Positions 48,569 to 56,421 of a DNA stretch of 64,000 nt are shown here, one piece after another. How positions within the stretch are numbered: the first letter of the stretch is position 1; each line of letters begins with the position of its first letter. The stretch is from Allostreptomyces psammosilenae. Lineage in GTDB: Bacteria > Actinomycetota > Actinomycetes > Streptomycetales > Streptomycetaceae. Location: NCBI RefSeq assembly GCF_013407765.1, contig NZ_JACBZD010000002.1:1002001-1066000 (forward strand), written 5' to 3'. A program made the translations under genes and the position numbers. Under the pieces are notes generated by a model, which had not been told where the DNA came from, did no database searches, and saw only the letters and a program-made list of their open reading frames with translations.

Positions 48569-50233
48569 TCAGTCCAGCAGCCGGTAGGCCGGCAGGGTGA
48601 GGAAGTCGGTGAACTCCTCGTCCAGTGCCACCTGGAGGAAGAGGTCGCGGGCGGTCTCCCAGCGACCGGCGGCGAACGCCTCCTCGCCCAGTTCGGCGCG
48701 GAGCCCGTCGAGCTCCTCGGCGGCGAGCGAGCGCACCAGCTCCTCGGTGGCCTTGGCGCCGGTGTCCCGCAGCACCACCCCGTTGTGGATCCACTGCCAG
48801 ATCTGCGACCGGGAGATCTCCGCGGTCGCGGCGTCCTCCATCAGATTGAAGATCGCCACCGCGCCGGAGCCGCGCAGCCACGCCTCGATGTAGCGGATGC
48901 CCACCGCGACGGCGTTCCGCAGGCCCTCCTGGGTGGTCGGCGCGTCGGCCGAGGCGACGTCCAGCAGCTGGGCGGCGGTCACCTCGACGTCCTCCCGGAG
49001 CCGGTCCACCTGGTTGTACCGGCCGCCGGCGGCCGGGTCGCCGAGGACGGCGTCGAAGCACTCCCTGGCCACCGGGACGAGGTCCGGGTGGGCCACCCAG
49101 GAGCCGTCGAAGCCGTCCCGGGCCTCGCGCTCCTTGTCGGCCCGCACCTTCTCCAGCGCCCGGGCGTTGACCTCCGGATCCCGGCGGGAGGGGATGAACG
49201 CGGCCATGCCGCCGATCGCCTGGGCGCCGTGCCGGTGGCAGGTGCGCACCAGCAGCTCGGTGTAGGCCCGCATGAACGGCGCGGTCATGGTGACCGCGTT
49301 GCGGTCGGGCAGCACGAACCGGGCCCCGGCGTCCCGGAAGTTCTTCACGATGGAGAACAGGTAGTCCCAGCGGCCGGCGTTCAGGCCGGAGGCGTGCTCG
49401 CGCAGCTCGTAGAGGATCTCCTCCATCTCGAACGCCGCCGTGATGGTCTCGATCAGCACGGTGGCGCGCACCGTGCCGTGCGGCAGCCCGACGTGGCGCT
49501 GGGCGAAGGTGAACACCTCGTTCCACAGCCGGGCTTCCAGGTGGCTCTCCAGCTTGGGGAGGTAGAAGTAGGGGCCGGCGCCGCGCTCCACCAGCCGGCG
49601 CGCGTTGTGGAAGAAGTACAGCCCGAAGTCGAACAGCGCCCCGGGGATCGGTGCGCCGTCCACCTGCAGGTGGCGCTCGTCCAGGTGCCAGCCGCGCGGG
49701 CGGGCCACCACCACGGCCAGCTCGGCGTCCGGCTTCAGCCGGTACTCCTTGCCCTCGGGGGTGGTGAAGTCGATGCGGCGGGTGTAGGCGTCGATCAGGT
49801 TGATCTGTCCGCCGACCGCGTTGGCCCAGGTGGGCGCCGAGGCGTCCTCGAAGTCGGCCAGCCACACCCGGGCACCGGAGTTGAGGGCGTTGACCGTCAT
49901 CTTCCGGTCGGTCGGGCCGGTGATCTCCACCCGGCGGTCCCGCAGCGCGTCCGGGATCGGGGCGACCTTCCAGTCGCCGCCACGGATCGCGGCGGTCTCC
50001 GGCAGGAAGTCCAGGGTTCCGGTGCGGGCGATCTCGGCGCGGCGTTCCCGGCGGCGGGCCAGCAACTCGTCGCGGCGCGGCGTGAAGGCGCGGTGCAGCT
50101 CCGCGAGGAAGGCCAGCGCCTCGGGCGTCAGCACCTCCTCGGCGCGCTCCACCTGGCCGGCGGTCAGGGTGACTCCGGGGACGGCCGTCTCCACGGGCGC
50201 CGAGGGGGCGGTGGAGGAGGGGAAGGACGACAT
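48569..50233 (-). CDS. aceB: Malate synthase A
   Basis: A 554-residue TIM-barrel enzyme joining glyoxylate and acetyl-CoA to malate. Family segments are [57 protein letters not shown] (with metal-binding Glu), [12 protein letters not shown] and [13 protein letters not shown] (with catalytic Asp just before, in [10 protein letters not shown]). Glyoxylate from allantoin breakdown is the likely substrate here. ATG at 50233 has AAGGAG nine bases upstream. Promoter and operator-like elements lie ~200 bases upstream, with a malic-enzyme relic between. Confidence 0.95.
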
Positions 50234-50295
50234 GGTGGAAGGCTCCTTCGACGCGGTGCCGGCCCCGCGCGGGCGGCCGGCACGGCACGGTTGGT

Positions 50296-50403
50296 TCAGT
50301 CGCTGCGGCCGGTGGCGACCACCGCGGCGTGCTCCCCGGCGACCGCCGGGTGGACCTCCGGATCCGGGTTGGCCGGGGCGAACACGATGGCGTCGTCCGC
50401 CAT
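50296..50403 (-). pseudogene. Malic enzyme relic in the malate synthase leader
   Basis: A 35-codon open frame from ATG at 50403 to TGA at 50296 reads [20 protein letters not shown] followed by [15 protein letters not shown]. This is the diagnostic NAD-domain segment of malic enzymes (xIVFAxANPDPE...ATGRSD). In full enzymes the segment continues with FPNQxNN; here it stops at once. It is either a decayed gene fragment or a retained leader peptide. It has no clear ribosome site. Confidence 0.75.
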
Positions 50404-50429: not shown

Positions 50430-50458
50430 AGGCTAGTTTCTACGATGCGGAAACTCAA
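50430..50458 (-). promoter_or_regulatory. Malate synthase promoter with IclR-type operator
   Basis: On the minus strand TTGAGT (50458-50453) and TAGCCT (50435-50430) are spaced by 17 bases. The spacer and its edges contain AGTTTC-n9-GAAACT (50435-50455). The half GATGCGGAAA recurs in front of allantoinase. Confidence 0.65.
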
Positions 50459-52321: not shown

Positions 52322-53125
52322 TCAGCCGGCCTCGGGCTCCGCCGCGGCGGCCGGCGCCAGGCTCGCCGACAACGCCGCGGCGGTCTCCTGCAGCGCCGGC
52401 ACGATCCGGGCCACCGCGTCGTCCGTCACCCGCCCCGCCGGGCCGGAGACCGAGATGGCCGCGGGCGTCGGGGAGTGCGGGACCACCACGGCCAGACAGC
52501 GCACCCCGACCTCCTGCTCGTTGTCGTCCACCGCGTAGCCCCGACCGCGGATGCGCGCCAGCTCCTCCCGGAACGACTCCGGGTCGGTGATCGTGTACGG
52601 GGTGGCGGGGGGCATCCCGGTGCGCGCGATGATCGCGTCGGCCTCCTCGACCGGGAGCTGGGCCAGCAGGGCCTTGCCCACCCCGGTCGAGTGCGGCAGC
52701 ACCCGCCGCCCGACCTCGGTGAACATCCGCATCGAATGCCGCTGGGACGCCACCTGCGCGACGTACACCACCGCGTCCCCGTCCAGCATCGCCATGTTGG
52801 CCGTCTCGCCGGTCACCTCGACCAGATGGGCCAGGTGCGCCTGTGCCCAGCGGCCGAGCAGGCGCTCGGCCTGCTCGCCCAGGCGGATCAGCCGGGGGCC
52901 GAGCGCGTACCGCCGGTTGGGCTGCTGGCGGACGTAGCCGGTCGCCACCAGGGTGCGCACGATGCGGTGGATCGTCGGCAGCGGGAGACCGGTCGAGGCG
53001 GCGACCTCGCTCAGGCCCACCTCACCGCCGGCGTCGGCCATCCGCTCCAGGATCTCGAACGCGCGCTCCAGCGACTGAACGCCCCCCGCCGAGCTCCTGG
53101 CCTTGTCGTTGCTGCCCTGCGGCAC
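52322..53125 (-). CDS. allR: IclR-family regulator (AllR-like)
   Basis: A 267-residue repressor. The winged helix (SLERAFEILERMADAGGEVG, then AASTGLPLPTIHRIVRTL) is at ~17-75. The IclR ligand domain follows, with RMFTEVGRRVLPHSTGVGKA and the conserved Cys in EVGVRCLAVVVPH. I recall an AllR regulator near malate synthase and allantoin genes in S. coelicolor that responds to allantoin-pathway intermediates; the link here rests on context. GTG at 53125 follows GGAAGG. Upstream half-sites suggest autoregulation. Confidence 0.88.
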   Translation of the reverse strand: MPQGSNDKARSSAGGVQSLERAFEILERMADAGGEVGLSEVAASTGLPLPTIHRIVRTLVATGYVRQQPNRRYALGPRLIRLGEQAERLLGRWAQAHLAHLVEVTGETANMAMLDGDAVVYVAQVASQRHSMRMFTEVGRRVLPHSTGVGKALLAQLPVEEADAIIARTGMPPATPYTITDPESFREELARIRGRGYAVDDNEQEVGVRCLAVVVPHSPTPAAISVSGPAGRVTDDAVARIVPALQETAAALSASLAPAAAAEPEAG

Positions 53126-53739: not shown

Positions 53740-56421
53740 TCAGCCCCGGTGCAGGGTGATCGTGGTCCAGGCGCCCACGTGCACCCGGTCGCCCGGCCGC
53801 AGCGGGAACGGCTGGTGTGACGGGAGCGACTCCACGGCACCGTTGATCGTGGTGCCGTTGGTCGACTCCAGGTCCACCACCGCCCAACTCCCGTCCGCCT
53901 GGAGCACGAGCGTCGCGTGCACGTGCGAGACCCCGGGGTCGGCCGGCGCCTCGGCCAGGTCGATCTCCGGACGCTCGCCCCGGCTGGCGCTGTACCTGCC
54001 GATCCGCACCTGCCGGCCGGTGAGCGGGATTCGCCGCTCCGGGCAGTAGGGCGGGAAGAACAGGCCCTGCGCCTCCGGGCCGCTGCGCGCCAGCACCGCC
54101 TGGAAGTAGTCCCAGTCGGCGTTGATCACCGCGGTCCACTGCGCCTGCTGCGGCGGACCCTGCTCCGGCCCACCCGGGCCGCCGGGGCCGGGCATCGGAC
54201 CCGGACCACCCGGGCCTCCGGGACCACCCGGGCCTCCCGGACCGGCGCCCGGCTGACCGGGGCCGGGGAGGCCGGGGCCTCCGGGTCCGTCGAAGCGCGG
54301 ACCGCCGGGGCCGCCGGGACCTCCGGGACCTCCGGGCGGGCCGTAGGGCTCGGGACCACCCTGCGGGAACGGCTGCTCGGGTCCACCGGGACCGCCCGGG
54401 CCACCGGGACCGCCGAAGCGCGGGCCACCAGGCCCGTTCGGGCCCGGCCCACCGGGGCCGGGGCCGTCACCTCGGAACGACTCCCGCACGCCGGGCGCCC
54501 CGGGGCCACCGGGGCCCGCCGGGTTCCGCTCGTCGCGGAACATCGGCGGCGGCCCGTCGCCACGGGGACCCTCCGGACCGGGGCCGTCGAAGCGCGGACC
54601 GTCCGGACGCGGCGGACCGTCGAACCGCGGCCCCTCCGAGCGGAAGGGGTCGCCCCGGAAGTCGCCACCCGGGCCGTCCGGGCCCGGTCCACCAGGTCCG
54701 CCGGGTCCACCGGGACCGCCGAAGCGCGGACCGTCCGGGCGCTCGGCCTCCGGCCCGGGCGGCGGTCCGTCCGGGCGGAAGTCACCGCGCGGTCCGTCCG
54801 GCCCGGGGCCGTCGAAACGAGGTCCGTCCGGGCGCGGCGGCCCGTCGAAGCGGGGCCCGCCGGGCACCGGAGGTCCGTCGGGGCCCGGTCCGCCGAAGCG
54901 GGGGCCGTCGGGGCCGGGGCCGTCGAAACGGGGTCCCTCCGGTCCGGGGCCGTCGAAGCGCGGGCCGCCGGGGGCGGGGCCGTCGAAACGGGGTCCCTCC
55001 GGTCCGGGGCCGTCGAAGCGCGGGCCGCCGGGGGCGGGAGGGCCGTCAGGGCCGGGTCCGCCGAAGCGGGGCCCGTCCGGGCGCGGCGGGCCGTCGAAGC
55101 GGGGGCCGCCAGGGCCGCCGGGCGCACCGGGGCCGCCCGGTCCGTTCGGGCCGGGGGCTTCGCGGTCGTCGCGGAACATCGGCGGGGGGCCGTCGGGGCC
55201 CGGTCCGCCGAAGCGGGGGCCGTCGGGGCCGGGGCCGTCGAAGCGCGGTCCCTCCGGTCCGGGGCCGTCGAAGCGCGGACCGTCCGGGCGCGGCGGCCCG
55301 TCGAAGCGGGGGCCGCCCGGTGCGGGGGGGCCGTCGGGGCCGGGTCCGCCGAAGCGGGGCCCGTCGGGGCCGGGCCCGTCGAAACGGGGACCGCCGGGCG
55401 CACCGGGGCCGCCCGGTCCGTTCGGGCCGGGGGCTTCGCGGTCGTTACGGAACATCGGCGGGGGGCCGTCGGGGCCCGGTCCGCCGAAGCGGGGGCCGTC
55501 GGGGCCGGGGCCGTCGAAGCGCGGTCCCTCCGGTCCGGGGCCGTCGAATCGGGGCCCGCCGGGTGCGGGGGGTCCGTCGGGGCCGGGCCCGCCGAAGCGG
55601 GGGCCGTCGGGGCCGGGGCCGTCGAAACGGGGTCCCTCCGGTCCGGGGCCGTCGAAGCGCGGGCCGTCCGGGCGCGGACCGGGACCCGACGGGCCGTTCG
55701 GCCCACCAGGCCCACCAGGCCCACCGGAGCGGCCGGGAGCCGGGGCGGGCTCGCGGGTCCATCCGGGCGGGAAGTCCATGCCGCGTCCGCCCGGCGGGGC
55801 GGGCGGGGGCGGCGGCGGAGCGGAGTCCCCGCCACCGACCCGCTCGAAGTTGCCCGGCCGGCCGCCGCTCGGCGGACCGTCGGGGCCGTCGAAACGCGGA
55901 CCGCCCGGCTCCGGACCGGGGCCACCGGGGCCGCCCGGACCGCCGCCGGGCAGGCCGGGGCGCCCCGCCGGCTCGAAGAAGGAACGGGAGGTCTCCCCGG
56001 TCGGCTGACGGGGCCCCGGCGCGGGCGGCGGCGCGTTCCACGGCCCGTCACCACCCGGCGGCGGCGGGAACGCGCCCGGCCCGCCCGGGCCACCAGGCCG
56101 CGGCGCGCCGGCTCCCGGCCCGCCGGGGCCCTGCGGGTCGTGCCGCATGCCGGTGGCGAAGTCGTAGCGGCACTCCTCGCAGAAACGGTCGCTCTGCGGG
56201 GTGTGGCAGACGGGGCAGTTCTGGATGTACGCCGTCGACTCAGGATCACCGGAAGGCGAACGCGGTGGCGGCGGTGGCATCGGCGGGTTACCGCCACCGG
56301 GGTAGCCCTGGGGGCCGAAGCGCTGGTCCGCGCCCCGGCCCTGGTCCCCGGCGATCGGTATGCCGCAGACCGAGCAGATGTCGTCGGTCGCCGAGTGGTG
56401 TCCGGCGCCACATCGCGGCAT
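53740..56421 (-). CDS. FHA-domain protein with zinc ribbons and long Gly-Pro repeats
   Basis: An 893-residue protein. The N terminus has a Cys-rich segment (CGAGHHSATDDICSVCG) and a zinc ribbon (CPVCHTPQSDRFCEECRYDF). About 600 residues of repeats follow, built from RFDGPGPEGP, RFDGPGPDGP and RFGGPGPDGPP units. The C-terminal FHA domain (RQVRIGRYSASRG, VSHVHATL, ESTNGTTING) spans the last ~110 residues. FHA domains bind phospho-Thr peptides. With PknG-like kinase and PP2C genes upstream, this is the likely phospho-reader, comparable in position to GarA/OdhI. The repeats resemble no folded domain. ATG at 56421. Confidence 0.9.
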   Translation of the reverse strand: MPRCGAGHHSATDDICSVCGIPIAGDQGRGADQRFGPQGYPGGGNPPMPPPPPRSPSGDPESTAYIQNCPVCHTPQSDRFCEECRYDFATGMRHDPQGPGGPGAGAPRPGGPGGPGAFPPPPGGDGPWNAPPPAPGPRQPTGETSRSFFEPAGRPGLPGGGPGGPGGPGPEPGGPRFDGPDGPPSGGRPGNFERVGGGDSAPPPPPPAPPGGRGMDFPPGWTREPAPAPGRSGGPGGPGGPNGPSGPGPRPDGPRFDGPGPEGPRFDGPGPDGPRFGGPGPDGPPAPGGPRFDGPGPEGPRFDGPGPDGPRFGGPGPDGPPPMFRNDREAPGPNGPGGPGAPGGPRFDGPGPDGPRFGGPGPDGPPAPGGPRFDGPPRPDGPRFDGPGPEGPRFDGPGPDGPRFGGPGPDGPPPMFRDDREAPGPNGPGGPGAPGGPGGPRFDGPPRPDGPRFGGPGPDGPPAPGGPRFDGPGPEGPRFDGPAPGGPRFDGPGPEGPRFDGPGPDGPRFGGPGPDGPPVPGGPRFDGPPRPDGPRFDGPGPDGPRGDFRPDGPPPGPEAERPDGPRFGGPGGPGGPGGPGPDGPGGDFRGDPFRSEGPRFDGPPRPDGPRFDGPGPEGPRGDGPPPMFRDERNPAGPGGPGAPGVRESFRGDGPGPGGPGPNGPGGPRFGGPGGPGGPGGPEQPFPQGGPEPYGPPGGPGGPGGPGGPRFDGPGGPGLPGPGQPGAGPGGPGGPGGPGGPGPMPGPGGPGGPEQGPPQQAQWTAVINADWDYFQAVLARSGPEAQGLFFPPYCPERRIPLTGRQVRIGRYSASRGERPEIDLAEAPADPGVSHVHATLVLQADGSWAVVDLESTNGTTINGAVESLPSHQPFPLRPGDRVHVGAWTTITLHRG
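54270..55690. repeat. Tandem repeats within the FHA gene
   Basis: Near-identical 30-60-base units encode the FDGPG(P)xGPR motif. Some larger blocks of well over 100 bases, containing REAPGPNGPGGPGAPGGP, are duplicated. The units are G-rich on the plus strand and may vary in number between strains or be misassembled. Confidence 0.85.

What the first reader, a model, noticed from the sequence alone, without database searches (positions are those of the whole stretch)
50296..50403. Malic enzyme relic or leader peptide between the promoter and malate synthase
The 35-codon frame contains the malic-enzyme NAD-domain signature ([11 protein letters not shown] and ATGRSD). It stops exactly where the full enzyme would continue with FPNQ. 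It starts ~20-25 bases after the predicted transcription start of aceB. Decayed fragments rarely keep an ATG, a clean frame and a stop, so it may have been kept as a translated leader that affects aceB expression.
Basis: partly seen in the sequence, partly recalled or inferred. Interest (0 to 1): 0.65.

Follow-up and report, generated by a model that had tools for sequence, protein, structure and literature searches.

The report
Malic enzyme remnant before malate synthase
A short leftover of a deleted malic enzyme gene sits between the promoter and the malate synthase gene of a Streptomyces-like bacterium; a few relatives still have the whole gene in that place, and nothing found here suggests that the leftover still does a job.

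Summary
On the minus strand (50296-50403) lies a 35-codon frame, [35 protein letters not shown]-stop, an internal piece of malic enzyme, between the promoter and malate synthase aceB (same strand, ATG at 50233). It is best explained as a deletion remnant. Two family members (genus g2) carry a full-length malic enzyme there, behind the same promoter element and directly before aceB; a more distant actinomycete has the same gene order. The leader-peptide idea gets no support: a poor Shine-Dalgarno match (-3.3 kcal/mol, against -8.8 for aceB and -10.4/-9.7 for intact malic genes), no second genome with the peptide among those examined, ordinary leader RNA folding, and Pro where all 33 compared enzymes have Leu or Met. 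ATG and open frame are inherited and survive simulated drift in 91-70% of runs at 2.5-10% substitution. The genome has two other full-length malic enzyme frames, neither of this subgroup. Selection on the peptide could not be tested: the genus holds one genome.

The parts
50296..50403 (-). malic enzyme remnant: 35 codons plus TGA, internal piece matching residues 351-385 of the 462-aa enzyme of G001 (NAD-binding domain)
50434..50458 (-). promoter element TTGAGTTTCCGCATCGTAGAAACTA, conserved upstream of aceB in the family; -35 and -10 assigned by eye
   Evidence: exact match to the family pattern, only match in the window; 219 of 224 family genomes/records
48569..50233 (-). aceB, malate synthase A, 554 aa
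   Evidence: Pfam MS_N, MS_TIM-barrel and MS_C on its first 544 residues
50243..50249 (-). Shine-Dalgarno site of aceB (GAAGGAG)
   Evidence: (duplex -8.8 kcal/mol), position
50234..50295 (-). spacer between the remnant's stop and the aceB ATG; no convincing malic enzyme similarity left

Best explanation
An ancestor had promoter - malic enzyme (ACT-type, aceB-linked subgroup) - aceB in a row on one strand. In this lineage the malic gene was lost by deletions that removed the end of its leader with its Shine-Dalgarno site and about 350 codons on one side, and about 77 codons on the other. That left 35 codons between the old promoter and aceB, and aceB is now read from that promoter as in nearly all the rest of the family. 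The remnant most likely acts only as part of the 5' untranslated leader and is drifting. Shown: homology, location, full gene in place in relatives, shared promoter element, poor Shine-Dalgarno match. Inferred: ancestral state, number, order and recency of the deletions, transcription from this promoter, lack of function.
For: Full malic enzyme between the conserved promoter element and aceB in G001 and G028, same strand (46 and 195 nt between its stop and the aceB ATG), and in G053 of another family in the class (promoter match there with 3 mismatches). The element (up to 3 mismatches) lies within 600 bp upstream of aceB in 219 of 224 family genomes/records, and in 0 of 277 base-shuffled upstreams, one shuffle each; of the 5 without it, G001 and G028 have it ahead of the malic gene, 1528 and 1670 nt from aceB, and G011, G024 and G141 have none in the 2 kb held. 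In 4 of 264 sources (184 genomes + 80 named records) there is malic enzyme similarity upstream of aceB: G001, G028, G053 full, G000 remnant (258 of 264 with at least 1400 bp upstream). The element ends 59 and 64 nt before the malic ATG in G001 and G028 but 30 nt before the remnant's ATG. Gly23 of the remnant occurs in 3 of 4 operon-type rows and 0 of 29 others (one search read). G000 has no match of this subgroup at E 1e-195 (11 of 20 candidates scored); its two full-length enzymes belong to other clades. In five genomes of genus g57 a close match of the subgroup lies 0.04-1.8 kb downstream of aceB, convergent (coordinates).
Against: 35 residues cannot place the remnant in the malic enzyme tree: the best placement is at the base of the ACT-type enzymes, the operon clade is allowed (AU 0.52), the own paralogues are disfavoured but not rejected (AU 0.061 and 0.077), and a place beside G001 or G028 alone is weakly rejected (0.04). 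By raw DNA identity the closest sequence is a standard-type enzyme (L033, 93 of 105) ahead of the operon type (89, 88 and 85; L027 85). All 18 columns invariant in 33 enzymes are kept, which would also fit selection on the peptide. In the aceB tree G000 is not sister to g2, so either several independent losses or a transfer is needed. The gene before aceB is rare (3 of 264), so the ancestral state is not certain. Other members of the subgroup are not beside aceB: G216 has it about 27 kb away, G267 far away, and G194, G229 and G256 have no listed aceB match; G010 has it without aceB.
Confidence: 0.86

Rival explanations
1. The remnant was kept as a short translated leader that tunes aceB, by attenuation, re-initiation or protection of the 5' mRNA.
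For: Clean ATG-to-stop frame at a suitable distance from the inferred transcription start; 18 of 18 invariant residues kept.
Against: Poor Shine-Dalgarno match: -3.3 kcal/mol, reached by 12% of 2000 shuffles, against -8.8 for aceB and -10.4/-9.7 for the intact malic genes. Leader fold z -0.43. No other of 264 sources has it. Complete ATG or GTG ORFs of 35 codons or more occur in 11 of 219 family aceB leaders, G000 being one of the 11. Pro10 replaces Leu/Met. ATG plus open frame survive simulated drift in 91%, 84% and 70% of runs at 2.5, 5 and 10% substitution.
Confidence: 0.07
2. The deletions joined the malic gene's own start region and own stop codon in frame around 35 internal codons, so that translation of the first cistron was kept and polarity on aceB avoided.
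For: Similarity fades right at the ATG and right after the last codon before TGA; the full genes of G001 and G028 end with TGA before aceB.
Against: The start has a poor Shine-Dalgarno match, so little translation is expected; the ATG is equally explained as the native internal Met, present in 33 of 33 enzymes; the spacer after the TGA aligned convincingly to none of the 8 malic genes tried.
Confidence: 0.1
3. A fragment of one of the genome's other malic enzymes was copied into the aceB leader by illegitimate recombination.
For: Two other malic enzymes exist in the genome, at 77% identity; phylogenetic placement does not exclude them.
Against: It would have to land by chance between the same promoter and gene, in the same orientation, where relatives hold the full gene. 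DNA identity to the own paralogues is 89 and 80 of 105, no better than to enzymes of other genomes.
Confidence: 0.04

Closest known systems
Bacterial gene remnant (pseudogene fragment) left by deletion
   Same: Non-functional piece of an enzyme gene, full gene at the same place in relatives, paralogues elsewhere in the genome
   Different: Short and tidy: 35 codons with an inherited ATG and a stop right at the junction
ACT-type malic enzyme next to malate synthase (G001, G028, G053; in five genomes of g57 downstream and convergent)
   Same: Same protein segment, and in G001 and G028 the same place between promoter element and aceB
   Different: In this genome about 427 of 462 codons are gone
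Leader peptides of attenuated operons (recalled as a class, no call)
   Same: Short ORF near the inferred transcription start, before the structural gene
   Different: Poor ribosome-binding site, no unusual RNA structure, found in no other examined relative

Membership tests
Deletion remnant of the malic enzyme - aceB unit | Significant similarity to part of malic enzyme | tested here: met
   E 6e-15
Deletion remnant of the malic enzyme - aceB unit | Full-length gene at the same place and orientation in relatives | tested here: met
   G001, G028, also G053; rare (3 of 264)
Deletion remnant of the malic enzyme - aceB unit | Promoter upstream of remnant matches promoter upstream of the full gene | tested here: met
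Deletion remnant of the malic enzyme - aceB unit | Remnant groups with the operon-type malic enzymes | tested here: inconclusive
   allowed (AU 0.52), not resolved; Gly23 shared
Functional malic enzyme | Malic N-terminal and NAD-binding domains | tested here: not met
   no Pfam match for the 35 aa at E 0.1; both domains in the G001 protein
Regulatory leader peptide | Ribosome-binding site | tested here: not met
   -3.3 kcal/mol; initiation without Shine-Dalgarno pairing is not excluded
Regulatory leader peptide | Conserved across relatives | tested here: not met
   in G000 alone; no other genome of the genus is held
Regulatory leader peptide | Alternative RNA structure or regulatory codons coupled to the downstream gene | tested here: inconclusive
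   z -0.43 for the leader; alternative structures not modelled
Regulatory leader peptide | Translated, with an effect on aceB | not testable with these tools
   needs ribosome profiling or reporters

The most novel reading that the evidence does not exclude
A deleted first cistron left a minimal ORF that is still translated and has become a leader that sets aceB expression or keeps the mRNA free of polarity: a gene remnant turned into a regulatory leader.
Probability: 0.06. Interest if true: 0.55.

Novelty: new member of a known kind. Interest (0 to 1): 0.22.

Why it matters
It is a clear case of a gene caught in a late stage of loss, with the full gene still in place in relatives, and it shows that a tidy ATG-to-stop frame is not evidence of a kept peptide when the fragment is young. 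As a side result, a subgroup of ACT-type malic enzymes lies beside malate synthase in several distant actinomycetes, which hints at a linked role in growth on acetate or glyoxylate (inference).

Tried and rejected
dN/dS of the remnant across relatives: impossible, the genus holds one genome. Placing the remnant in the malic enzyme tree: unresolved with 35 residues (the first try, failed on a thread setting). Extending the similarity beyond the ORF edges, against 8 malic genes: the immediate flanks match 1-5 of 15 bases upstream and 6-8 of 15 downstream; of 16 local comparisons with 500 shuffles each the lowest P were 0.020 and 0.024 (uncorrected), both for the spacer and both near or past the 3' end of the malic gene rather than next to the break. 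RNA structure of the leader: nothing unusual. A first promoter comparison looked for strings that I had guessed and found none of them; the real sequences were then read from its output. Papers: six searches listed no paper whose title or abstract start describes a malic enzyme remnant or leader before aceB; I saw listings and starts of abstracts only and read no paper.

Counts and dropped rows: one search covers the sources in which aceB was found (184 genomes, 80 named records); L238 (G047) was dropped because aceB did not align in its stretch; G142 and G060 have only 267 and 167 bp upstream. Of the 145 family genomes with an aceB match, at least G098 and G156 were not fetched. Named records and G genomes overlap in part (for example SCUT-3), so 224 and 264 are not all independent. 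One search listed one more short-frame match among 60 relatives, G052:C2:25706 (E 0.009, 54% identity, 48-aa frame), which I did not follow, and its list was cut. The trees used 43, 45 and 33 chosen rows; without an outgroup G000 fell on the same side of the midpoint as g2, which the rooted tree explains as a grade. Membership of the g57, g45 and G216 enzymes in the operon-type subgroup rests on E-value alone, not on a tree.

Full report
What is there. On the minus strand, 50296-50403 reads [35 protein letters not shown] and a TGA. aceB (malate synthase; three Pfam malate synthase domains) follows on the same strand with its ATG at 50233. The peptide matches residues 351-385 of a 462-aa malic enzyme. 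On its own it gives no Pfam hit, while the full protein has the malic N-terminal and NAD-binding domains. In 33 malic enzymes compared, position 1 is always Met and 18 columns never vary; the remnant keeps those 18, but has Pro at position 10, where 28 have Leu and 5 Met. Similarity fades at the ATG on one side and after the last codon on the other.

Where it came from. I compared the region upstream of aceB in 184 genomes and 80 named records (fetched; 258 of the 264 with at least 1400 bp upstream). Three have a full-length malic enzyme directly upstream of aceB on the same strand: G001 and G028, two of the three genomes of family genus g2 (the third, G017, has no aceB match at E 1e-100), and G053, of another family in the class. 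This genome has the remnant. No other row has malic enzyme similarity there at E 0.05. The malic gene ends 46 nt (G001) and 195 nt (G028) before the aceB ATG.

The promoter ties it together. A 25-nt element, TTGA-N2-TTCC-N9-AAACTA, lies within 600 bp upstream of aceB in 219 of 224 family genomes and records when 3 mismatches are allowed, and in 0 of 277 base-shuffled upstreams. In this genome it is at 50434-50458, just before the remnant. In G001 and G028 it lies before the malic enzyme, 1528 and 1670 nt from aceB; G053 has a weak version (3 mismatches) before its malic gene. The other three family rows without it, G011, G024 and G141, show none in 2 kb. The order is thus promoter - malic enzyme - aceB in g2, promoter - remnant - aceB here, and promoter - aceB in nearly all the rest.

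Phylogeny. In an aceB tree of 45 chosen rows with 12 outgroup rows, g2 branches off first within the family, then S. novaecaesareae (weak, 89/41), then this genome, which groups with the 29 other family rows at 100/97, those 29 together at 99/95. That fits a malic enzyme present at the base of the family and lost more than once; a later gain or transfer cannot be excluded. The operon-type malic enzymes form their own clade (L066, L067, L010, L027; 100/98), apart from the standard ACT-type enzyme found elsewhere in the family's genomes, to which this genome's L002 belongs; its L003 is of a third, shorter type. Only 3 of 150 family genomes have the operon-type subgroup at E 1e-195 (G001, G010, G028), and G000 is not among them. 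In five genomes of genus g57 the closest match of the subgroup lies 0.04-1.8 kb downstream of aceB, convergent. Others do not: G216 about 27 kb away, four genomes of g45 not beside aceB, G010 without aceB.

What does not fit neatly. The remnant alone cannot be placed: its best position is at the base of the ACT-type enzymes, the operon clade is allowed (AU 0.52), the two own paralogues are disfavoured but not rejected (AU 0.061, 0.077), and a place beside G001 or G028 alone is weakly rejected (0.04). The closest DNA is a standard-type enzyme (93 of 105 bases) rather than the operon type (89 and 88 in g2, 85 in L010 and L027). Gly23, however, is found in 3 of the 4 operon-type rows and in none of the 29 others. 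The case rests on place, orientation and promoter more than on the 35 residues.

Is it a leader peptide? The start has a poor Shine-Dalgarno match: duplex energy -3.3 kcal/mol (12% of 2000 shuffles reach it), against -8.8 for aceB and -10.4 and -9.7 for the intact malic genes. The promoter element ends 59 and 64 nt before the malic ATG in g2 but 30 nt before the remnant's ATG, so the deletion probably took the site away. The leader RNA folds no better than shuffles (z -0.43). Eleven of 219 family aceB leaders contain a complete ATG or GTG ORF of at least 35 codons, this genome being one of the eleven. In a simulation of neutral drift at the window's 75% G+C, ATG and open frame survive together in 91% of runs at 2.5% substitution, 84% at 5% and 70% at 10%. 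With one break in about 19 constrained codons the remnant looks young (my estimate: a few percent of change, if neutral), so a clean frame is expected. That the stop comes at the very first codon after the break is a small coincidence (stop codons make up about 1.2% of random triplets at this composition) that drift does not explain; the malic gene's own TGA is one possible source.

Mechanism, as I read it. One deletion joined the promoter-proximal leader to the internal Met codon; another joined the Asp codon to a TGA, either the malic gene's own stop or a chance one. aceB keeps its promoter and its own ribosome-binding site. Steps shown: homology, full gene in place in relatives, shared promoter element, poor Shine-Dalgarno match. 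Steps inferred: ancestral state, number and order of deletions, transcription start, absence of function.

Verdict. A real but ordinary deletion remnant; the leader-peptide reading is possible (about 6-7%) but has no positive support.

Noticed in passing
window 50434-50458 (-): A 25-nt promoter element with a palindromic core (GTTTCCGCATCGTAGAAAC here) is conserved upstream of aceB in 219 of 224 Streptomycetaceae rows; an IclR-type regulator gene lies nearby at 52322-53125 (-) and could be its regulator (guess).
   Followed up: partly
G209:C91, G226:C1, G241:C404, G276:C66, G286:C1: A close match of the aceB-linked malic enzyme subgroup lies 0.04-1.8 kb downstream of aceB, convergent, in five genomes of one genus, which suggests a functional link.
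   Followed up: partly
G010:C144:9771-11144 (L010, L071): A family genome with the operon-type malic enzyme, no aceB match at E 1e-100 and no promoter element in the 11 kb around the gene.
   Followed up: partly
window 50256-50283: A perfect 9-bp inverted repeat (GTGCCGGCC..GGCCGGCAC) lies between the remnant's stop and the aceB ribosome-binding site; it forms a stem in the predicted leader fold.
   Followed up: partly
window 53740-56421 (-): Long ORF with many Gly-Pro-rich repeats (GPRFDGPGPDGP...) and a non-repetitive C-terminal part that looks like an FHA domain by eye; no search was made.
   Followed up: no
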